NCBI GenBank assembly: GCA_011389815.1
Contig: JAABTP010000024.1
Coordinates: forward strand, 1-39,893
Origin: Desulfobulbaceae bacterium
Lineage (GTDB): Bacteria > Desulfobacterota > Desulfobulbia > Desulfobulbales > Desulfobulbaceae
DNA: 39,893 nucleotides
Direction of reading: 5' to 3'
Shown: positions 400 through 30,210 of the stretch, piece after piece
How positions within the stretch are numbered: the stretch's first letter is position 1
Layout of the letters: every line of letters starts with the position of its first letter
Translations under genes and position numbers: made by a program
The notes under the pieces: generated by a model
Seen by the model: the letters and a program-made list of their open reading frames with translations, nothing else
What the model was told of the DNA's origin: nothing
The model's database searches: none

Positions 400-534
400 G
401 AAAAATGTATGAAAACTATGTTGTTACCGTGCCGGAGCAGGATGCGGACCTTCTCACATCCAACTATTTCTACCGGACCCAGGCCAAGACGAACTGACCT
501 GCCTATGGACTTGGCGAACACATGGGGTTCGCCC

Positions 535-766
535 TTACTTCATTGTATTGATGAGTTTGTCGATATCCACAGATGGGTCTACAACAGGATGTAATTGTTC
601 TCTCAGGCGCTTAAACTCTTGCAGGGCAACCAAAACCTTCTTGCCCCTTGCTGGATCCGGCTGTTTTACAGCCTTTTTTTGTATATTTGTCAACGAGATA
701 TTCATAGAAGCCGAACAGCTCTCTTTTTGCGGCCTCGGGTAATATTTCCATGTTTAATTCTTTCAT
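535..766 (-). pseudogene. Frameshifted antitoxin-like gene
   Basis: An ATG at 766, preceded by AGGAG at 6-nt spacing, starts MKELNMEILPEAAKRELFGF, which resembles the N-terminus of DUF2281/VapB-like antitoxins that accompany PIN toxins. After about 31 codons the frame runs into a run of seven A residues and continues into an unrelated tail. The neighbouring frame instead gives a sensible end (VKQPDPARGKKVLVALQEFK, then ...DPSVDIDKLINTMK) stopping at 535-537. The most economical reading is a one-base frameshift in the A-run. The frameshift could be a sequencing error or programmed slippage, but the surrounding decay favours a pseudogene. Confidence 0.5.
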
Positions 767-819
767 AATCATCTCCTGACCCTGCATGTCAACGTTCTGG
801 AAATCTTTAGTATGTTCAG

Positions 820-1093
820 TATATTCAAATTCTCCCGGAAGCACAACCGTTGTGAGGGAACAAGGGATGCGGGTGGTTGCGGGGCAGCAGACGGTGGGAT
901 GGGGGAACGAATTGCGATCATTTTTTTTTGGGGGGGATTGGGTATTTGTCGGGGATAATTGAAGAGGATGGAGGGGGACAGCCCTTCGGGGGAAGGGCCG
1001 GGGTTGTTGCGTTCCTGGGCTTTATTTCACGGTACCGGTGGGCATTGGAGGAGGTGAGAAACGAGTTGATTAATTGGGTTTTGACCCCTTTTA
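820..1093. repeat. ~270-bp direct repeat, copy 1
   Basis: This stretch is closely repeated at 1,998-2,272 in the same orientation. Both copies start with TATATTCAAATTCTCCCGGAAG, pass through a G-rich core with a T-run, and end near GGAGGAGGTGA. Differences are scattered substitutions and small length changes in the T/G runs. Open frames exist but none keeps a recognisable protein in both copies, so I treat it as a non-coding duplicated element of unknown nature. Confidence 0.7.
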
Positions 1094-1139
1094 TCCGTGC
1101 TGCTCAAGGAAAATGGCTCCGGTTTTCTCCGAGCCTGTT

Positions 1140-1511
1140 TCACATTTTTTCAATATGCTTGCGAAGCTTTTTATCGAAAGTCAGGATCTCCTGCTGGTCA
1201 ACGGCATGATAAGCCCAGAGCAACGTGTCAACAAAGTCCAATGATGTTGTGGAATAGCATTCAAGGGCCTTCAGGAACACATCAGGTTTCTCGACTGCAA
1301 CCAGCTGTCTGTTGACGAGTTCACCGAGATACTGCTGAATCTGCTCTCTGTCCACTTTGTAGACTTTTTGCAGAACATAAACGACTTCGCATGCCGCCTC
1401 CATCGGAAGAAGAACATCCTTCTCCTCAATGAGTTCAACCGCCTTCGGCGACAGTTCAGGATGGTCGTCCAGCAGATAACGCAAGACAATATTTGCATCA
1501 ACAAGGGCCAT
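1140..1511 (-). CDS. PIN-domain toxin (VapC-like)
   Basis: The 123-residue product begins MALVDANIVLRYLLDDHPEL: the Asp in LVDAN is the first metal-binding residue of a PIN ribonuclease. The Glu in AACEVVYVL is the second, and LDFVDTLLWAYA-like SLDFVDTLLWAYHA supplies the third acidic pair, followed by ILTFDKKL. These are the usual four acidic positions, and length is normal for VapC toxins, which cut RNA. It overlaps the upstream antitoxin gene by 14 bp, the classic arrangement for a co-translated toxin-antitoxin pair. It is the only intact toxin in this otherwise decayed patch. RNA target unknown. Confidence 0.8.
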   Translation of the reverse strand: MALVDANIVLRYLLDDHPELSPKAVELIEEKDVLLPMEAACEVVYVLQKVYKVDREQIQQYLGELVNRQLVAVEKPDVFLKALECYSTTSLDFVDTLLWAYHAVDQQEILTFDKKLRKHIEKM

Positions 1512-1740
1512 GTTTTTCCTTCACAGCGTCCTGCCATGCCTCATGCTCGCGAGCAATCAAGGAAGAATCCGCGTATTGGCGCAGGCAACCTCGAAGGCTT
1601 CTTTCCTCCGGGGCTGTGCTTTTTTTCTGATGCGCCGTAGAGAGGACAATAATTTCTACCTGCTGTCCCCAAAATTGTTTAGGAAGATGCAGATGAACCC
1701 GCCCATTTTTTACTGTTTGGATTTTTCGAATCGCTTCCAT
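1498..1740 (-). CDS. Antitoxin partner of the PIN toxin
   Basis: Eighty residues starting MEAIRKIQTVKNGRVHLHLP. The N-terminal VKNGRVHLHLPKQFWGQQVE resembles the swapped-hairpin DNA-binding domain of AbrB/MazE-type antitoxins (a short beta strand, a conserved Gly/Arg, then LP), and the C-terminal half (LRQYADSSLIAREHEAWQDA) looks like a toxin-neutralising helix. It precedes the PIN gene and overlaps it by 14 bp, which supports the antitoxin role and autoregulation. Directly upstream lies a fragment related to the PIN N-terminus found at 268, so the promoter region is itself a recombination junction. Family assignment is by position and short motifs only. Confidence 0.65.
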   Translation of the reverse strand: MEAIRKIQTVKNGRVHLHLPKQFWGQQVEIIVLSTAHQKKSTAPEERSLRGCLRQYADSSLIAREHEAWQDAVKEKHGPC

Positions 1741-1753
1741 ATTGACCTCGTTG

Positions 1754-1870
1754 AGTTATCAAGATATATCTTCACCATAATCTCACTATACAGCAATCAT
1801 TCTGTGCAGGTAAAGAGACAAACCCAAGATTATCCCGTTTTCCGCCCTCCGCCCGGCAACACAACCTCAA
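1754..1870 (-). pseudogene. Degenerate copy of the RND-tail/PIN-start junction
   Basis: The stretch matches 247-350 with many changes: both contain a variant of TTATCAAGATATATTTTCA, then CTATACAG.AATCA, then GTGCAGGTAAAGAG. On the minus strand it reads a decayed pump tail ending in GGRKTG-stop, followed by MVKIYLDN, a PIN-type start, which then runs into the antitoxin start region. It is a second copy of the same ancestral junction and should not be functional. Confidence 0.45.
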
Positions 1871-1997
1871 CTTGTGTCCCCGAATTACTTTCCCAAGGAC
1901 AATGGTTCCGATTCTCCCCAAGCCGGGTGTAAAGGCCATTGAAAGCTGAAAGGGCTTGTGTCCGCTTTCGTTTCACTCAAGCAGACCTACCTAGCTG

Positions 1998-2272
1998 TAT
2001 ATTCAAATTCTCCCGGAAGCACAACCGTTGTGACGGAACAGGGGATGCGGGTGGTTGCGGGGCGGCAGACGGTGGGCTGGGGGAACGAGTTGCGATTATT
2101 TCTTTTTTTTGGGGGATTGGGTATTTGTCGGGGATGATTGAAGAGGATGGAGGGGGACAGCCCTTCAGGGGAAGGGCTGGGGTTGTTGCGTTTCTGGGTT
2201 TTATGTTTACGGTGGCGGTTGGCATTGGAGGAGGTGACAAATAAGTTGAATAATAGGGCTCTGACCCCAATT
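1998..2272. repeat. ~270-bp direct repeat, copy 2
   Basis: Second copy of the element at 820-1,093, same orientation. It sits between the toxin-antitoxin patch and the large secreted protein gene at 2,491. The region 2,273-2,490 beyond it shows no gene; it must hold the promoter for the secreted protein, with a ribosome binding site AAGGAGGGAAGT just before the ATG at 2,491. Confidence 0.7.
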
Positions 2273-2490
2273 AATTCCTGCATAATTGACAGAATCAAAT
2301 ATTTGTGCTATACGGGTTCATTCTGAACGTTTATCAATGCGAATTAGGGGTTGAAATCCATAGCACAAAATCAAGAGGATAGAGCTGTTGATTTTTATAA
2401 AACAGCAATAGCTTTTCTGTAACTGCCTGTTTTTACCGAGACGGGAAAATCCAATTCCTATTCGTATTTATCAATAAAAAGGAGGGAAGT

Positions 2491-5400
2491 ATGCAAGGTT
2501 ACCTAAGGATTAGTTTGATTACGGTACTGGCAACTGTTGCCATTGGAACATGCGGCGGTACATTTTTACAACCGTTATCGACGACACAGGCATTTGCACA
2601 ATCAGCAGAGGAACAAAATGCTGCTCAAAAAATAGAGCAGAAACGGAAAAAGATTGAATTGCATCCAGAAAACTTTTCGGGTGGCGATGTCGGCAATGCA
2701 ATTGGCACAGTTACAGCAGTTTCCTCCGTCGGGGGAAACACCGTTATCGCCTATGCTCAGGAGTTTGAAGAAGGAGTAATTGTCTATTCCGATGACTTCG
2801 GGGCAGTTCGTATCTCGACCGCTATCTGGAATAAATGGCAGTCGCTTGCATTACAGCAAACTGGTGACGGTAGTAACCTGTTTAACTATATCGGTGTTCC
2901 GATAAATGACTACACTTGGCAGGACAGCTATCAAGATGGCCGGTTTGAACGCGGCTGCATCCTTATTGAGTCGGGACCTTCCAAGCATATCGTCTATGGT
3001 GATATATATACTCGATATCTGGATGTTGCTAAAGATATTGGTTTGCCTGTTTCTGAGGAACAAGCTGGCCCCAACCAGGGACGCTATCAAGCATTTACCA
3101 ATGGAGAAATCTATTGGAAAGCTGATACGGGGGCTTTTGTGGTCCAAGGTGCTACCCTTGATCGTTGGAAGGTACAAGGAGGGGCTGGAGGGGCGGCGTT
3201 AGGATATCCACTCTCTGATACTGGCCCGCTTATAGTTGAAGATAATGATGGTAATCCAATAACTATCGGCACTGTTACTCTCTTTGAAAAAGGTGCTGTA
3301 TATGAGAGTAGCTATGGAACTTGGGAAGTAACAGATGAAATATTTTTTGGCTATAAAGAAACTGGAGGGCCAAGCGGTTGGCTTGGAGTTCCTGTCTCTG
3401 GCATAGGAACGAATGCGGATGGCTACAGCTACCAAGATTTTGAAAACGGAGTACTGGTCGATTATAGACCAGATGCCGACCTTAACCACTGGGCGGTGCT
3501 GCCATTCGGTGCTCTTGAATTTTATCTTACAAGACTTCAGGGGGATGGCGACGACTGCATGAGCACACCCTTTGGTAGCCTTTGCGGCTCTCAGGATATC
3601 TATGCTTACTTAGATATATATACGCCTGATGGTCATGTGGTCGATGAACGTTTTCCCAACAGCGGTTGCTACGGAAGCAGTAAGGATGTCGGCTGGCCAG
3701 TGACGATAACATCTGCTGTACATAGCGATTTTATCGCTGATGTTTCTCTTGAGGTATGGGATGATGATGATTCAAGTGGTAACGATCATCTCGGTACACT
3801 TCATGCGACATACTCTATAGACAATCTCTGGGGGGTTACCGAAGATGAGAATGGTATGCGCCGAAATGGAGATGCTGGAGCAGTTTTTTCGATACGTACA
3901 AAAGATTTGCCATATAATCCAGAGAACTTCTGGAAGTATATGTTTTGGCCGTTTGAAAATTTCAGCACAGATGAACTGACTTATGACCAGTATGCTGCAA
4001 CCTTTACCGATGTTGAAACAGATGAAGACTGGTGGCTTCACCCGTTTAATGCCTTGTGGTTTAAATTATACAAAGGTGTTGCAGCAAATGGGAACTGTTT
4101 CGGAATGGGACTTGAGTCAATCTATGCTCAACACGGATGGTCACCTTATTCGGAGCCTATCAATCGTTATTATCCCGAGATTAGGGAGCTGGAGCCTGAC
4201 CCCATTCAACACGCGGGACTTATAAATGAGCTGAATATCAAGCAAGGGTACCAGTTAGGGACAAATATGGTACTCTGGACACTTGGAATGGTTGCGAGCG
4301 GAGCAACCCATGATCCGCACTTAAATTACACTGGTGCAGCTACAGCTGCAGCGATAGGAGATCACCCCCTAATATCAATTTTTGACGATTATCTTTTTGG
4401 GAGTGGCCATTCTGTACGTCCATACCTTTTTGATGAATTCACAGAGTGTAGTGATGGAGGTCCCGGATGCTCCAGGATTTACATTGCTGACTCAAATTAT
4501 CCTTATCCGCATGCAAAGGAAAAAAACGGGGAGGTCGTTGAAAAAAATTTCATTGAAATAAATCATGTATTAAATACGTTTGAGTACCGCAACTACAGTG
4601 GCGGCTTCTTCACTGGTGGAAGAATGTTCTGGCAGCCAAGTATTCTTTTCACTCAATCACAAGTTACTCCCTTTGGAGCAGCATTTGAATTAATTAAAAA
4701 CGGTTGGTTTATTTTGGTTGGCAGTGAAGGAAGAGCTAATCAGATAACGGACGATACAGGTAAAACATTCTTCAAGCCTGGCTTATCTGGCCCTCCTACA
4801 AAATGGGCTGATATCCGCAACAGCACTGATGCAGACCGTCTTGCAAATTTGGCTCCTGTTATGGTGAGCAATGGTTCTTCTTCTACTATGCCTATGCAAC
4901 TGTATGCTGGTCAAGGTATAGGTGCTTCCATTGAAACAGAAATAGTTCCTGCGGCAAACGTTCCTGATGGTGAAATTTACGAAGCCGTCTTTGAATCCGG
5001 CAAGATTTCATCTGTCATCAAGAGCCCGGGAACAGAAGGAAAACCTGATAGTCTCACAGCGCATAATATTGGTGACAAGGGCAAGGCAGTTTCATTTGGT
5101 ATCCCTTCAGATGGTGTTGCTAAAAATATCACTTGGACTATTGCTGGACCGGACAAGCAAGTTTGGGCTGAATTGAGCAATATGAAGATAGTTCCAGGGC
5201 AGAATCTAAAAATCAAAGTAACCAACAGAGGGTATGATCTTGTCTATGAGAACGACGGGCCTGGAACAACTGCTGATCTGTCAGTTCATTCCGGGGCAGG
5301 CAGTGATATAGTTCATGTTGGTCAAATTGAGATTGATCCTGATCAAAGCGGAACATTACAGTATTTGCTTCCTGTTACGACAATAACGGTGACAGGTCAG

Positions 5401-6899: not shown

Positions 6900-7505
6900 A
6901 TGGCCAGCAAAGAACGCTATATCAACCTGTTCACTGATTACGGATTTAAAAAAATCTTCGGTGAAGAGCCGAATAAAAACCTGCTCCTGGATTTTGTCTT
7001 TGACGAAGATAAAGACCAACCTGAAAAATACCGCTATGATGTTAAGTTGACAGACATTGACACCAATCGGGTGTTTTATGATAAGCTGACCTTTATCTAC
7101 CTGGAAATGCCCAAATTCAGCAAAAGACTGGATGAGCTGAAGACTCGGTTTGACAAGTGGCTGTACGTTATCAGGAACCTGAATCGGCTGGAACGAATAC
7201 CAGACATGCTGCGGGAACAGGTGTTTGAGCAGCTCTTTGATACTGCGGAGATTGCACGCTTTACCCCGGACCAGGTGCGTTCTTATGAGAAGAGTCTGAA
7301 ATATTATCGGGACATGAAAAACTCCCTTGATACCGCTTTTGATGAGGGGAGAGTAGAAGGAAAAGAAGAAGGTAAGAATGAAAGAGATAGAGAGATAGTC
7401 CGTAATGGAATTCAGCAAGGAATTGATATCAAAATGATTGCTCAGTTGACGGGCCTGTCAGAAGAAGAGATTAAGGAGATTGAAAAAGAGCGCTCGGACG
7501 ACTAA
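6900..7505 (+). pseudogene. Internally deleted Rpn/PD-(D/E)XK transposase-like gene
   Basis: The frame is open for 201 codons. It starts MASKERYINLFTDYGFKKIF and contains YDKLTFIYLEMPKFSK, both diagnostic of the Rpn/PF12784 family (PD-(D/E)XK nuclease 'transposases'). Full-length relatives have about 300 residues. Here LLLDF, the end of the first helix, joins directly to VFDEDKDQPEKYRYDV, which normally lies about 100 residues later, so the nuclease core with the catalytic Asp/Glu-X-Lys is missing. The C-terminal coiled-coil (EGRVEGKEEGKNERD) and terminal helix are intact. The deletion is in frame and may have arisen by recombination between short 'LDF' coding repeats. A nuclease-dead product might still be made and bind partners. 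Confidence 0.65.
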
Positions 7506-7606
7506 CAAGAAGAAAGAGTCGTTTATCCGGTAAAAAGGGTCAGAGTAAAATTAGATTTTACTCTGCAACTGATCAAATATCACGACTCGAATAATCCTCT
7601 TTTTCC

Positions 7607-8227
7607 CTAATCAGGGAGACTGCGCACAGTCAGCCGATTTCTTCGCGCTCCCTGTTCAGCAAACCGTACTTTTCTGTACACCTCGGCCAGCGGCAGTTCG
7701 CAGTCTATTGTTTCGACAGAGAGTATATCTTCTTCACCCTGATATATCGTATACACCCAGGAATTGTCGGCCTGCCGGGCAAATCGTTCCATCTTAAAGG
7801 TATACTGAGAAACCAGGATATACTCGGTAAATGAAGGGATCTCCTGATAATGGGAGAACTTGTCTCCCCGATCATAGGCCTCGGTGCTGCCGGAAAGGAT
7901 TTCTATAAGAACGACGGGATTCAGCAGCACATCGTTGTGCTCATCCTCATACTCCTCTTTTTCACAGACAACAACGATATCCGGGTAGGAATACTTTCTC
8001 CTCTTTTGGATCTTCACCTTCATGTCGCTGGCAAAGACGCTGCACGGCTTCTCCAACAGCTGATTGCCCAGCAGGCGGACGATATTTGTCGAGATCTGGT
8101 TATGTTCCCGGCTTGCTCCGGCCATGGCAAAGACTTCTCCGGCAAAGTATTCATGCCGGATATCACCATCACGTTCCCCGGTAAGATATTCTTCAGGGCT
8201 GATATGATGCTGCTTCTGTGCCTGCAT
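7607..8227 (-). CDS. Uma2 family putative endonuclease
   Basis: The 206-residue product begins MQAQKQHHISPEEYLTGERD and has the Uma2 (DUF820) signature: the YLTGE...IRHEYFAGEVFAMAGAS start, NIVRLLGNQL, and the PD-(D/E)XK core with SYPDIVVVCEKEE and NPVVLIEILSGSTEAYDRGD followed by KFSHYQEIPSFTEYILV. The Asp in YPDI and Glu in IEIL are the expected metal-binding residues. Length is normal. Uma2 proteins are very common in cyanobacteria and large bacterial genomes; their substrate is uncertain. The start at 8,227 is preceded by AAGGAGAAGGACC. Immediately upstream is the PIN N-terminal fragment 8,271-8,304. Confidence 0.85.
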   Translation of the reverse strand: MQAQKQHHISPEEYLTGERDGDIRHEYFAGEVFAMAGASREHNQISTNIVRLLGNQLLEKPCSVFASDMKVKIQKRRKYSYPDIVVVCEKEEYEDEHNDVLLNPVVLIEILSGSTEAYDRGDKFSHYQEIPSFTEYILVSQYTFKMERFARQADNSWVYTIYQGEEDILSVETIDCELPLAEVYRKVRFAEQGARRNRLTVRSLPD

Positions 8228-25949: not shown

Positions 25950-26096
25950 TTATTGAGAAGTTACCTTCACTTCTGCAGTCATGTCATCAATTGCTGAAAT
26001 AAACTGTAGATAACGTTGATTCGCCTCCGATAATACCTCCGGGCGTCCCAAAGTCTGTCTGACCACGCTGTCATGAGGGTTGTCCGCTGTGCTCAT
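25950..26096 (-). CDS. Small ORF, possible Rpn-family N-terminal remnant
   Basis: A 48-residue frame, MSTADNPHDSVVRQTLGRPE then VLSEANQRYLQFISAIDDMT. The first half (NPHDS..RQ..GRPE) resembles the conserved start of Rpn/YhgA-type nucleases, which continue for about 250 residues more; here the rest is absent. It may be a remnant or an independent small protein. It faces away from the DGR. Confidence 0.35.
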   Translation of the reverse strand: MSTADNPHDSVVRQTLGRPEVLSEANQRYLQFISAIDDMTAEVKVTSQ

Positions 26097-26216
26097 AGGA
26101 AAAATATAACCTTTGTCGTGATATTTTGTGCAACCTGGTCTTTCAGGCGGATTACTCGACCAAGGTTCCTCGCCCCTGTTTTCTTTTTCTGTATTGGTTC
26201 AAAAAAATATATTTGT

Positions 26217-26245
26217 TTGACTGCCGTGAATCCTTGAAATATAAT
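26217..26245 (+). promoter_or_regulatory. Sigma-70-type promoter of the DGR target gene
   Basis: TTGACT, 17 bp, TATAAT: one mismatch from consensus with ideal spacing. Transcription would begin near 26,252, about 73 bases before the ATG at 26,325, which has GGAGGAGG in front. Confidence 0.8.
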
Positions 26246-26324
26246 ATTTTTAATACATAGTGTCATGTAGTAATATTTGTTAAATGGTGCGGGATAACGA
26301 GAAGGAACGGAGGAGGAAAAATAT

Positions 26325-27626
26325 ATGAAAACGACAAAAGACTTCAGCAGAAGGAAAAGAAATCGGAGCCTGGCAGCCCTATGCCTGATCTCTTTAATGC
26401 TCACTGCGCCTGCGGTGCAGGCGAATAAAGTGGTGGTGATACCGCTGGGCAGCACGACCAATATCGGTGCGTCCATCTATTGGACCGGAGAGTGGCAGGA
26501 CGGCTTTCAGTATGCCATCGGAGACGGGATGCAGTACGGTGGCAGTAGCTATCTCTGCGTGAAGGATCATGTATCCTCGTCTGCCAATACTCCGCCAAAC
26601 GGGACGTATTGGAGCCTGATGGCTGAGAAGGGTGATATCGGCCCTCAAGGATCATCTGGTGCTCAGGGGCCGCAGGGAGTCGCCGGAACTGATGGTGCTC
26701 AGGGCGTTCAGGGTGCTCAGGGGCCGCAGGGAGTAGCAGGGCCACAAGGGGCTGATGGTGCTCAGGGCTTTCAGGGTGCAGAAGGTCCGCAGGGCGTAGC
26801 AGGGCCGCAGGGTGCGCAAGGCCCTTCCGGTACCAGTTCATGGACAGACGCGACCGGCAAGGTCACGGCGACCGTGGATGTGGGTATCGGTACCGGCGCG
26901 GCGACACCGGGTGCAAAGCTGCATGTGGACGGTGAGATAAAAATGGAGGCAACTGCTGCCGCTTGTGATACGGCGTCCGCAGGCAAGATCCGTTGGAGCG
27001 GCTCGGATTTCGAGGGCTGCAACGGCACATCCTGGGTAACATTCACATACAGTCCGGTGGTGATCCCGACTGTGACTTCAGCCACCGGCAAGGTCTGGAT
27101 GGACCGTAATCTGGGCGCGAGTCAGGTGGCAACGTTGTTTGACGATACAGCCGCCTACGGCGATCTGTACCAGTGGGGCCGACCGACAGACGGCCATGAA
27201 CAGCGGGACAGCGGCACTGTAGGTACTCAATGGGGTGGCGCATAGCCCCAACCCGATCATGGGAATTTTATAACCGGCTTCTTAGATTGGCTGAGCACGC
27301 CGGACCCCGCGCTCTGGAATGGTGTAGCCGGTATAAATAATCCCTGTCCCACCAGCTTCCGGTTGCCCACAGATACGGAGTGGCAGGATGAGATCGATCA
27401 ATACGGAGCAACCAGCATCGCACTTTTTGATTCACCCCTGAAGCTTGTAGCGGCAGGTTGTCGCAACTACCTCGGCACGCTCTTCTTCGCGGGCAGCAGC
27501 GGCTACTGCTGGAGCAGTACGGTCGACGGTACCAGCGCCCGCGTCTTGAACTTCAGTAGCGGCAGCGCCGCCCTGCACAGCTTCTACCGCGCAAACGGCT
27601 TCTCTGTCCGTTGCCTCAAGGATTAA
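26325..27626 (+). pseudogene. DGR target protein with in-frame TAG (collagen-like, FGE/lectin-fold end)
   Basis: One frame runs 433 codons, interrupted only by a TAG at 27,243-27,245 (codon 307). The N-terminus is a signal peptide (LAALCLISLMLTAPAVQA). Residues ~50-100 form a small carbohydrate-binding-like segment (GEWQDGFQYAIGDG..YLCVKDH). Residues 103-169 are collagen-like Gly-X-Y repeats (GPQGVAGPQG). A C-terminal formylglycine-enzyme/C-type-lectin-type domain of the 'Fib_succ_major' kind starts with GKVWMDRNLGASQVAT and LYQWGRPTDGH, and resumes after the TAG with PDHGNFITGF, NNPCPTSFRLPTDTEW, and the variable repeat ending in SVRCLKD. The domain is split by the TAG, so the protein is either inactive or needs read-through. 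TAG is an ordinary stop elsewhere here (nifK, the MSL gene). Expected role: a surface binding protein diversified by the DGR. Confidence 0.85.
27446..27623 (+). repeat. DGR variable repeat (VR)
   Basis: The 178-bp repeat aligns without gaps to the template repeat at 29,986-30,163. I count 22 differences, and at every one the TR has A while the VR has G, C or T. They change 16 residues, mostly Asn codons (AAC) of the TR into Tyr, Phe, Ser, Leu, Val or His; one change is silent. The last 33 bases, from GCAAACGGCTTCTCTGTCCG onward, are identical and would hold the initiation-of-mutagenic-homing site. The VR encodes the last 59 residues of the target gene and stops at TAA 27,624. Confidence 0.97.
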
Positions 27627-27660
27627 GACACTTTGATTTATTTGTCATCTTTGTCCCTTT

Positions 27661-27692
27661 ACGACCGCATCGCGTAGCGTGCGGTCGTTTTT
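27661..27692 (+). terminator. Hairpin 37 bp after the VR
   Basis: ACGACCGCA and TGCGGTCGT form a perfect 9-bp stem; the loop contains a further CGC/GCG pair. A T-run follows. It may be the DGR cruciform that stimulates retrohoming downstream of VRs, a terminator, or both. A second T-run with a short CCGC/GCGG stem follows by 27,720. Confidence 0.65.
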
Positions 27693-27758
27693 ATTTTACC
27701 GCGTAGCGGGCGAATTTTTTTTCATGGCGCAATAGAATAATTGTGGTATGTTGGGGGT

Positions 27759-28247
27759 GTGAATACGGAAGAGAAAATACGACTGGCAGGCGATCTGTCC
27801 TGTCTGTATCTGCATAAGGAAGGCATTTTTTACAAGGTGTATAATAAGGATGCCATGCTGTTCATCGGAAACATCAAGCCGTTGAAGATTACAGCCAAAT
27901 TTATTAAAGTTGTTGATCAATATGTCTACAGTGCCGGTTTCCCGGAATCCGTACTTGAGCGGGTCAAAGAGAAGCTGCACAGCTGCGGCGGAGTGTTTGA
28001 AACGGCGGAAAAAATGCTAAAGGTCACCGGTGTCCGATGGAACGAGGCAGAGGATTATTCGGATTGGTGCGGACGGTGGAAAGGGAAGGCAGAAGAAAGG
28101 CATGAGGCTGACTCAGCAAGTATCGCACAGCAGGTGGCCGCTTTCCCGGTGATGCAGAGAACACCGATGGAGGCCGTGCAGTTCATTATAAGTATGCAGA
28201 AACAGCTGAATACAAAGCGGAATGCGGCCCCCGCATCGGGATTGTAG
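27759..28247 (+). CDS. DGR accessory protein, MutS-like (MSL) type
   Basis: From the GTG at 27,759 the product is 162 residues. LYLHKEGIFYKVYNKDAMLF parallels the mismatch-binding domain I of MutS (FYRMGDFYEMF), followed by ITAKFIKVVDQYVYSAGFPE. The last third is charged and ends in a weakly conserved helix. MutS-like (MSL) accessory genes are known in a subset of DGRs, so the position between the VR and the reverse transcriptase supports this call. Its function in mutagenic homing is unknown. The start is uncertain: an in-frame TTG at 27,741 is the alternative and neither has a good ribosome binding site. The stop TAG lies in the hairpin at 28,244. Confidence 0.6.
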   Translation: MNTEEKIRLAGDLSCLYLHKEGIFYKVYNKDAMLFIGNIKPLKITAKFIKVVDQYVYSAGFPESVLERVKEKLHSCGGVFETAEKMLKVTGVRWNEAEDYSDWCGRWKGKAEERHEADSASIAQQVAAFPVMQRTPMEAVQFIISMQKQLNTKRNAAPASGL

Positions 28248-28269
28248 GGGCACGACGTACCGTGCCCCT
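28244..28269. repeat. GTAGGGG-type palindrome between MSL and RT genes
   Basis: AGGGGCACG and CGTGCCCCT form a 9-bp perfect stem with a 6-nt loop. The MSL stop codon is inside the left arm. It is another member of the interspersed repeat family. Confidence 0.8.
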
Positions 28270-28274
28270 GTCCG

Positions 28275-29513
28275 ATGATGCATAAAAATAACGATACGCT
28301 GGATGAAAGGCTGTTTGCAGCCTATTACAGGGCGCGGAAAAACAAACGGAACACGTACAACCAGTTGCGCTTTGAGATGGATTATGAACATAATCTGTTT
28401 CAGCTTGCCGACGAGATCCGAAATCGTTGCTATACCCCCGGCCCCTGCACCGCTTTTATTGTTGATAAACCGGTTAAACGGGAAATATTCGCCGCTGATT
28501 TTCGCGACCGGGTGGTGCATCACCTGCTGCACGGAACGATTAATCCTGCGGTGGAAAAAAAGCTGATTCACGACACCTACAGCTGCCGAATTGGTAAAGG
28601 AACCCTGTTCGGCATAAACCGGCTTGATGCGTTCATCCGCTCCTGCACAGAAAATTATCAGCGGGATGCCTATATTCTTAAACTGGATATAACAGGCTAT
28701 TTCAGGAACATGCGCCATGATGTTCTGTGGGTAAAAGTGCAGCGGATACTGTCGGGCAGAAATAACGATTATGGCGGCCTGTCACGGGAACTTATCGACT
28801 ATCTGCTGCGACGGATTATTCACACCCCGGCGGCGGTCGGATGCAGGAGGAAATCTCCTGGCACGGCATGGAAAGGACTGCCGAAAAGCAAGAGCCTGTT
28901 TTATGCTGAAAAAGGTTGCGGTCTGCCCATCGGTAATCTGACCTCGCAGCTGTTCGGAAACATTTTTATGAATGATTTTGATCATTTTATAAAGCATGAT
29001 CTGCGGGTGCGCTGTTACGGCAGATATGTTGACGACATGGTGTTTGTTCATCAGTCCAAGGAATTTTTGCGGAGTATCATTAACGAGGCGAAAAAAGAAC
29101 TCGCAGCTGTTGGCTTGGAGGTGCATCCGGGCAAAATCTATCTTCAACATTACAGCAAAGGTGTGTTGTTTCTCGGTCAATATATTAAACCGTATCGAAA
29201 ATATATCAGCAGGCGGACAAAGAACAACTTTTACCGAATGATCAATGAAATCAACCTGCTGCTTGAAACGGAACAAAGAATAGATGAACAGGTGCTTGAA
29301 CATATCAGAGCAAGGATGAACTCCTATCTCGGCACTCTCGGTCATGCGGACACCCGCCATCTGATTATCAAGGCGAGAAAGAAGCTCTGTCCTCAGTTTT
29401 TCTTTTTCTTTTCATTCGATGACGCATACAGCAAAATAACGCTGAATATCCGGAACCTGCTATGGCATTATACACAGCCTTGCCTGTCTATAAAGTCGCT
29501 TATGACCTGCTGA
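28275..29513 (+). CDS. DGR reverse transcriptase
   Basis: The 412-residue protein copies the TR RNA with adenine-specific errors and the cDNA replaces the VR. Motifs: AYILKLDITGYFRN (catalytic Asp138), GCGLPIGNLTSQLFGNIFMN (the DGR-type motif 4 with SQ, residues ~215-232), GRYVDDMVFVH (catalytic YVDD at 251-254) and LGQYIKPYRKYISRRTKNNF for the thumb. The GLPIGNLTSQLFGN signature separates DGR enzymes from group II intron and retron RTs. Two adjacent ATG codons (28,275 and 28,278) can start it. Its end overlaps avd by 52 bp. No maturase or endonuclease domain is present. Confidence 0.95.
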   Translation: MMHKNNDTLDERLFAAYYRARKNKRNTYNQLRFEMDYEHNLFQLADEIRNRCYTPGPCTAFIVDKPVKREIFAADFRDRVVHHLLHGTINPAVEKKLIHDTYSCRIGKGTLFGINRLDAFIRSCTENYQRDAYILKLDITGYFRNMRHDVLWVKVQRILSGRNNDYGGLSRELIDYLLRRIIHTPAAVGCRRKSPGTAWKGLPKSKSLFYAEKGCGLPIGNLTSQLFGNIFMNDFDHFIKHDLRVRCYGRYVDDMVFVHQSKEFLRSIINEAKKELAAVGLEVHPGKIYLQHYSKGVLFLGQYIKPYRKYISRRTKNNFYRMINEINLLLETEQRIDEQVLEHIRARMNSYLGTLGHADTRHLIIKARKKLCPQFFFFFSFDDAYSKITLNIRNLLWHYTQPCLSIKSLMTC

Positions 29514-29821
29514 TTGAGCTTTTTAGGCGCACAGGTAAATTTCCCAGAGAATACAAATATACGCTCGGAGAAAAGCTGAAGAACGAGGCTCTGGAATTGA
29601 TCCTCAATATTTACAGGGCCAATAAAAGCCGGAATCGGGACAGATTGGAATGTATAGCCGAAGCGCGGGACAATGCGGAAGCGATTCGTCTGCTGTTGCG
29701 TTTAAGTAAGGATCTTAATGTGATCGGTAATAAACCCTTTGTCCAGTTGAACAGCGGCATTGAGAATGTCTCTGTTCAACTGGTCGGATGGGAGAAATAT
29801 ATGACCGGAGTTGCAGGATGA
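29462..29821 (+). CDS. avd: DGR accessory variability determinant Avd
   Basis: The 119-residue basic, all-helical protein starts MALYTALPVYKVAYDLLIEL, with KFPREYKYTLGEKLKNEALE and NIYRANKSRNRDRLECIAEA following. This is the four-helix-bundle family of Avd (related to bacterial S23/bAvd proteins), a pentamer with a positive channel that binds the reverse transcriptase and TR RNA and is essential for mutagenic cDNA synthesis. It overlaps the RT end by 52 bp in another frame, so the two are co-expressed. Stop TGA at 29,819. Confidence 0.93.
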   Translation: MALYTALPVYKVAYDLLIELFRRTGKFPREYKYTLGEKLKNEALELILNIYRANKSRNRDRLECIAEARDNAEAIRLLLRLSKDLNVIGNKPFVQLNSGIENVSVQLVGWEKYMTGVAG

Positions 29822-29900
29822 CCGGAAGGTCTATTCTGCGAGCGTGTCATATTCATCCTGACAGACCGCCGGGACGTATTTCCTTATGTCCGGGCAGAAA

Positions 29901-29921
29901 GGATGCCTCGACAAGGCATCC
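29901..29921 (+). other. Hairpin upstream of the template repeat
   Basis: GGATGCC and GGCATCC pair (7 bp, 7-nt loop) between avd and the TR. It could structure the TR RNA for RT-Avd binding. Confidence 0.4.
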
Positions 29922-29985
29922 GCTTCAGGTGCAATGCCCGCACCCGGATTACGCCTGAAGATGTCAAGTGTTTGTCCGCCCGCCA

Positions 29986-30163
29986 TGTAGCGGCAGGTTA
30001 TCGCAACAACAACGGCACGCTCAACAACGCGGGCAGCAACGGCAACTACTGGAGCAGTACGGTCGACGGAACCAACGCCCGCAACTTGAACTTCAATAGC
30101 GGCAACGCCGACCTGAACAGCAACAACCGCGCAAACGGCTTCTCTGTCCGTTGCCTCAAGGAT
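29986..30163 (+). repeat. DGR template repeat (TR)
   Basis: The 178-bp TR sits 3' of avd and outside any supported gene. Its AAC and AAT codons lie exactly where the VR varies (the translation would read RNNNGTLNNAGSNGN). The non-A positions match the VR completely. It is transcribed from the same strand as RT and avd and ends 6 bp before the terminator stem. Confidence 0.97.
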
Positions 30164-30169
30164 GAATGG

Positions 30170-30210
30170 ATCCCCTCTGCTATGTTAACGGCGGAGGGGA
30201 TTTTTTTTTT
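30170..30210 (+). terminator. Terminator closing the DGR unit
   Basis: ATCCCCTCTGC pairs with GCGGAGGGGAT (11 bp with one U-G pair), followed by ten T residues. It immediately follows the TR and fixes the 3' end of the TR RNA. Confidence 0.93.

What the first reader, a model, noticed from the sequence alone, without database searches (positions are those of the whole stretch)
26217..30210. Complete diversity-generating retroelement with adenine-only VR/TR divergence
All parts are present: target gene, 178-bp VR, MSL-type gene, RT with the DGR motif GLPIGNLTSQ, Avd and TR. I aligned VR and TR base by base: 22 differences, all at TR adenines, altering 16 residues, and none at C, G or T. This is the hallmark of mutagenic homing and implies recent activity. 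The target is a secreted collagen-like/lectin-fold protein, so the system would diversify a surface binding site in a nitrogen-fixing anaerobe.
Basis: partly seen in the sequence, partly recalled or inferred. Interest (0 to 1): 0.9.

Follow-up and report, generated by a model that had tools for sequence, protein, structure and literature searches.

The report
DGR with a stop-interrupted target gene
A sediment-type bacterium carries a genuine gene-diversifying cassette (a diversity-generating retroelement) that has rewritten part of a collagen-stalked secreted protein gene, but a stop codon just before the rewritten part means that, as assembled, the varied binding head would not be made.

Summary
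VR 27446-27623 and TR 29986-30163 differ at 22 of 178 positions, all TR adenines (chance about 2e-14), changing 16 residues. A MutS-like (MSL) gene, RT and Avd lie between them, and the order target-MSL-RT-Avd-TR recurs in Desulfocapsa-type relatives.

The ORF with the signal-like N-terminus and collagen repeats stops at 306 aa; most of the lectin-like head and the whole VR lie beyond it. All 25 aligned relatives are open there, and the orthologue at the same locus in a congener (G002) reads GAG. No pyrrolysyl-tRNA synthetase passed the cut-off. The VR also carries Cys at a Tyr kept by all 25 relatives. So this is an apparently active diversifier facing a recently broken target, or an assembly error; reads would decide.

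Also found: a covarying hairpin 37 bp after the VR, shared by nine loci, including two congeners with neither this RT lineage nor a TR ("orphan" targets); and a second, different DGR in the same genome (FGE target, HRDC accessory), nearly all adenine-specific.

New member of a known kind; moderate interest, not 0.9.

The parts
26325..27245 (+). Target gene, 5' part: 306-aa ORF with signal-like N-terminus, collagen-like repeats and the start of the head domain; ends in an in-frame TAG (27243-27245)
   Evidence: ORF; Pfam Collagen E 2.5e-12; orthologue in G002 has GAG at the TAG codon
27246..27626 (+). Target gene, 3' part: same frame, rest of the FISUMP / C-type-lectin-like head, ending TAA
   Evidence: Frame open after the TAG; Fib_succ_major E 2.1e-7, below curated cut-off; 25 aligned relatives open here
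27446..27623 (+). Variable repeat (VR)
   Evidence: 22/178 differences from TR, all at TR adenines
27661..27688 (+). Post-VR hairpin, 37 bp after the VR: outer stem of up to 9 bp, bulged T, inner stem; probable homing target-site element (role inferred)
   Evidence: Fold z -5.0; covarying stem in nine loci
27741..28247 (+). MSL-type (MutS domain I-like) accessory gene, 168 aa from TTG; relatives start at the position of residue 7, so the true start may be a little downstream
   Evidence: Family of five in the same place; weak MutS_I matches
28275..29513 (+). Reverse transcriptase, 412 aa, YVDD, GLPIGNLTSQ
   Evidence: RVT_1 E 7.8e-17; phrog_1423 E 1.8e-92; nearest solved chain 8ub7 E 3e-30
29462..29821 (+). 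Avd, 119 aa, overlapping the RT gene by 52 bp
   Evidence: bAvd E 1.2e-13, over cut-off; phrog_3206 'Avd protein of DGR' E 2.1e-19
29986..30163 (+). Template repeat (TR)
   Evidence: only two copies of the sequence in the genome
30170..30211 (+). Hairpin with T run after the TR, terminator-like
   Evidence: Fold z -3.95

Best explanation
This is a cell-encoded, not obviously phage-borne, DGR with the order target-MSL-RT-Avd-TR. TR RNA is copied by the RT with Avd, with errors at adenines, and the cDNA replaces the VR at the 3' end of a gene for a collagen-stalked, lectin-headed secreted protein; a hairpin just after the VR probably marks the target site. The machinery is intact and has homed recently. 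In this assembly the target frame has a derived nonsense codon (TAG where the congener has GAG) upstream of the VR, so the diversified head is most likely not translated now: the diversifier writes into a silent or dying target. Shown: adenine-specific divergence, intact RT and Avd frames, in-frame TAG, orthologue with Glu. Inferred: that homing still goes on, that the hairpin serves homing, that the family are surface adhesins, that the TAG is real rather than an assembly error.
For: 22/22 differences at TR A, P 2.1e-14; RT, Avd and MSL; same order and adenine-biased VRs in L014, L015, L016; in-frame TAG; no stop in the same domain of 25 aligned relatives; GAG in the orthologous gene of G002, which sits before the same glycosyltransferase gene; no PylS over cut-off; Cys at a Tyr kept by all 25 relatives; covarying post-VR hairpin.
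Against: No reads or expression data. The genome is a 233-contig draft, so the TAG may be an assembly or sequencing error. The sign of lost constraint in the VR is weak: P 0.02, or 0.07 without the silent change, and the second DGR of this genome also shows 3 of 6 changes at adenines outside AAY codons.
Confidence: 0.7

Rival explanations
1. The DGR and its target are both fully functional; the TAG is a sequencing or assembly error, or a minority variant in the population.
For: Draft of 233 contigs; all relatives open at this place; machinery intact and VR fresh; one substitution accounts for the TAG.
Against: The rest of the frame is clean on both sides of the TAG; Cys at an otherwise universal Tyr fits lost constraint.
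Confidence: 0.25
2. The TAG is read through or recoded, so the full protein is made, perhaps at a low level.
For: The frame continues in register with a conserved domain after the TAG.
Against: No pyrrolysyl-tRNA synthetase over cut-off; no relative has a stop there, the G002 orthologue has GAG. Suppressor tRNAs were searched only in the window (none), not genome-wide.
Confidence: 0.04
3. VR and TR are an ordinary recent duplication and the adenine bias is chance.
For: None found.
Against: 22 of 22 differences at TR adenines, none at the other 127 positions, beside a DGR-type RT and Avd, with the same pattern in relatives.
Confidence: 0.01

Closest known systems
Bordetella phage BPP-1 DGR (mtd, avd, brt)
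   Same: Adenine-specific VR/TR divergence, RT, Avd, VR at the 3' end of a probably C-type-lectin-fold protein, hairpin downstream of the VR (PMC3240598)
   Different: Cell-encoded beside nif genes; extra MSL gene; TR at the far 3' end after Avd; hairpin 37 bp from the VR with a bulged T and without the GRNA loop of the phage examples; target interrupted by TAG
Desulfocapsa-type DGRs found here (L014, L015, L016)
   Same: Same gene order, RT 71-77% identical, Avd about 75%, MSL 44-50%, same post-VR leader and hairpin
   Different: Their target frames show no stop where they can be read; L015 has two tandem VRs in one gene; L016 RT is frameshifted
Legionella collagen-like adhesin Lcl
   Same: Collagen-like repeats followed by a C-terminal head; best structural match of the head (8q4e, Z 6.9)
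   Different: No sequence relationship of the head detected in the PDB search; I know of no DGR acting on Lcl
Cellular DGRs of multicellular bacteria, several per genome (PMC10907252)
   Same: More than one DGR in this genome; the congener G006 has two FGE-like heads on large NTPase-like proteins as DGR targets
   Different: The target here is a secreted collagen-like protein, not an NTPase sensor; no RT tree was built

Membership tests
Diversity-generating retroelement | Paired TR and VR differing at TR adenines | tested here: met
   22/22 at A, P 2.1e-14
Diversity-generating retroelement | DGR-type reverse transcriptase with intact catalytic motif | tested here: met
   phrog_1423, nearest solved chain 8ub7, YVDD present; activity not tested
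Diversity-generating retroelement | Accessory protein (Avd, or HRDC or MSL) | tested here: met
   Avd over cut-off; MSL weak
Diversity-generating retroelement | VR inside the coding sequence of an expressed target gene | tested here: not met
   VR is in the frame of the target, but beyond an in-frame TAG in this assembly. This is a property of the present target allele, not of the cassette
Diversity-generating retroelement | RT-dependent mutagenic homing | not testable with these tools
   Needs reads or a reconstituted system
DGR post-VR hairpin/cruciform element | GC-rich inverted repeat shortly after the VR, stem kept by covariation | tested here: met
   distance 37 bp against 4-34 bp in the phage examples (PMC3240598)
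DGR post-VR hairpin/cruciform element | 4-nt GRNA loop (phage examples) | tested here: not met
   Loop and bulged T differ
MSL (MutS-like) DGR accessory | MutS domain I (PF01624) | tested here: inconclusive
   All 5 members match, best E 0.001; window member E 0.014, 16.0 bits against a cut-off of 20.6; structure model too poor
C-type-lectin-fold DGR target | C-type-lectin-like fold of the VR domain | tested here: inconclusive
   Model pLDDT 84; Foldseek nothing at E <= 0.001; VIA list dominated by C-type lectins, Lcl, Mtd and TaqVP at Z 4-7, under the Z 8 guide

The most novel reading that the evidence does not exclude
The nonsense codon is real while RT, Avd and TR keep homing, so the VR is written without selection on the protein: the locus would be a natural read-out of raw, unselected DGR mutagenesis, and part of a wider pattern in this genus in which diversified adhesin-like genes and their hairpin target sites outlast their DGRs (orphan targets in G002 and G006).
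Probability: 0.3. Interest if true: 0.5.

Novelty: new member of a known kind. Interest (0 to 1): 0.4.

Why it matters
It shows DGRs, two of different kinds in one genome, in a nif-bearing bacterium related to Desulfobulbales; no paper in the held library names diversity-generating retroelements together with Desulfobulb- or Electrothrix. The congener loci with the same target and hairpin but no machinery give an orthologous with/without comparison of a DGR. A nonsense-interrupted target with a fresh VR, if real, would let the raw mutation spectrum of a wild DGR be measured without selection on the protein.

Tried and rejected
Stop-codon recoding: no PylS over cut-off. Phage origin: the cassette lies between a nitrogenase gene and a glycosyltransferase gene, and the scan of viral contigs with the RT found no relative (such scans find close relatives only). 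Further VRs of this TR in the genome: none; two other FISUMP genes of the genome (contigs C87, C99) do not match the TR. A second copy (TR) of the VR region of the orphan targets in G002 and G006: none. Relatives of the head by sequence in the PDB: none at E 0.1; Foldseek nothing significant. MSL structure: model too poor to search (pLDDT 42); MSL profile against PDB sequences gave only low-scoring ubiquitin-type matches. One search failed for a wrong frame. The organism could not be named: closed congeners of 4.8-5.1 Mb are compatible with cable bacteria of Ca. Electrothrix (5.09 Mbp, PMC10926707), but this is a guess and was not tested.

Full report
Observation. The repeat pair is real: 27446-27623 (VR) and 29986-30163 (TR) match without gaps and differ at 22 of 178 positions, every one at a TR adenine (12 to T, 7 to G, 3 to C). 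The TR has 51 adenines in 178 bases, so 22 of 22 has a hypergeometric probability of 2.1e-14. The changes alter 16 residues and leave one codon silent (GGA to GGT). A 23rd mismatch in the tool's 181-bp repeat is in the target's stop codon, outside the repeat. The sequence occurs only twice in the genome.

Machinery. The 412-aa RT is open and carries YVDD and GLPIGNLTSQ. It matches phrog_1423 (E 1.8e-92) and, as nearest solved chain, 8ub7 (E 3e-30), which from memory is the Bordetella phage DGR RT. Avd passes the bAvd cut-off and matches phrog_3206, 'Avd protein of DGR'. It overlaps the RT gene by 52 bp, as in relatives. The 168-aa gene before the RT has no hit at standard thresholds, but all five members of its family hit MutS domain I, best E 0.001, which fits the MSL accessory (PF01624, PMC10053308). 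I call this supported, not proven.

The target ORF stops at TAG 27243-27245. The same frame continues without another stop to TAA 27624-27626 and contains the VR. None of 25 aligned related heads has a stop in the domain. In the congener G002 an orthologous gene, with the same collagen-like build and 76-77% aa identity outside the repeats and the head, has GAG at this codon. It lies just before the same glycosyltransferase gene (95% aa identity). The TAG is therefore derived, most simply by one substitution. No pyrrolysyl-tRNA synthetase passed the cut-off. VR mutagenesis can neither make nor remove this codon, as it lies 200 bp outside the VR. As assembled, the product would be a 306-aa collagen-like protein without the varied head. 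An assembly error in a 233-contig draft cannot be excluded.

Constraint on the head. Of 26 aligned heads, 25 have Tyr before the invariant Trp; the window has Cys, by A to G at a TR TAC codon. Changes at adenines outside AAY codons are 4 of 19 in the window against 1 of 47 in three relatives (P 0.02; 0.07 without the silent one). But the second DGR of this genome, whose target is open, has 3 of 6, and adenines in AAC contexts are mutated more by the BPP-1 RT itself (PMC12875486). I treat this as weak support for lost constraint.

Related loci. L014 and L016 (Desulfocapsa) and L015 (labelled Proteobacteria bacterium) share the RT at 71-77%, the MSL gene at 44-50% and Avd at about 75% identity, in the same order, with adenine-biased VRs. 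L015 has two tandem heads in one 1795-aa target, both differing from one TR mostly at adenines. Decay is common: the L016 RT is frameshifted, L017 keeps fragments, G043 has an open target and MSL but a truncated RT, and no Avd was detected near it. G002 and G006 have related targets with the same hairpin but no RT of this lineage (G006's only RT above the threshold is 34% identical and belongs to an FGE-type DGR) and no second copy of the VR region.

Locus comparison. In G002 the gene order is target, hairpin, about 0.7 kb with tandem repeats, glycosyltransferase; in the window the 2.7 kb between target and glycosyltransferase hold MSL-RT-Avd-TR. Identity of the orthologous proteins falls from 77% at the N-terminus to 28% over the VR. 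The hairpin is nearly identical in G002, so loss of the cassette there is my preferred reading; gain in the window is not excluded.

Hairpin. 37 bp after the VR a 28-nt hairpin folds far better than shuffles (z -5.0). In nine loci 8 of the 9 outer-stem pairs form in all sequences, and 6 of those 8 do so with more than one pair type through changes on both sides; the bulged T and C-rich inner stem recur. Arms were aligned by hand. In BPP-1 a hairpin after the VR is needed for efficient homing; phage examples have 7-10-bp stems, GRNA loops and distances of 4-34 bp (PMC3240598). Position and stem fit, the loop does not. Only some of the nine have a T run behind it, so it is unlikely to be only a terminator. 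Its role in homing is inferred.

Target. The 5' part is collagen-like with a signal-like N-terminus (seen directly). The head model (pLDDT 84) resembles the C-terminal domain of Legionella Lcl (Z 6.9), many C-type lectins, and the DGR targets Mtd (Z 5.8) and TaqVP (Z 4.1). Foldseek alone was not significant, and Z under 8 may reflect only a common arrangement. A collagen stalk with a lectin-like head fits an adhesin (inference).

Second DGR. Contig C97 (L050) of the same genome carries an FGE-domain target, an HRDC gene, an RT and a TR/VR pair with 14 of 15 differences at TR adenines.

Verdict. A genuine, apparently recently active DGR whose target reading frame is interrupted in this assembly: a new member of a known kind.

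Noticed in passing
L050 283-3350 (contig C97 of the window's genome): A second DGR of a different kind: FGE-sulfatase-domain target 2034-3350(-), HRDC gene 1405-1908(-), RT 417-1421(-), TR 283-416, VR 2038-2171; 14 of 15 differences at TR adenines.
   Followed up: partly
L054 4389-12065 (congener G006): A DGR with two VRs, 12 of 12 and 23 of 23 differences at TR adenines, in FGE-like heads of two large NTPase-like proteins; resembles the putative antigen sensors of PMC10907252.
   Followed up: partly
L015 62-5449: A 1795-aa target with two tandem VR-bearing heads served by one TR.
   Followed up: partly
L057 5652-8072 (congener G002) and L019 (congener G006): Targets of the same family with the post-VR hairpin but no RT of this lineage and no TR copy: possible orphan DGR targets.
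   Followed up: yes
window 26034-26120: A stretch of about 85 bp upstream of the target recurs three times within 12 kb of congener G002 at 86-90% identity (L057 1518-1591, 2570-2655, 9576-9657): a dispersed repeat of unknown nature.
   Followed up: no
window 26325-26460 and L050 2034-3350: Both DGR targets of this genome share an N-terminal motif (VVVIPLG) after a signal-like sequence, seen directly in the translations: perhaps a common secretion or anchoring module.
   Followed up: no
L057 about 7500-7980 (congener G002): Tandem array of a repeat unit containing CCCCAAGGGGAT between the target and the glycosyltransferase gene, where the window has the DGR cassette.
   Followed up: no
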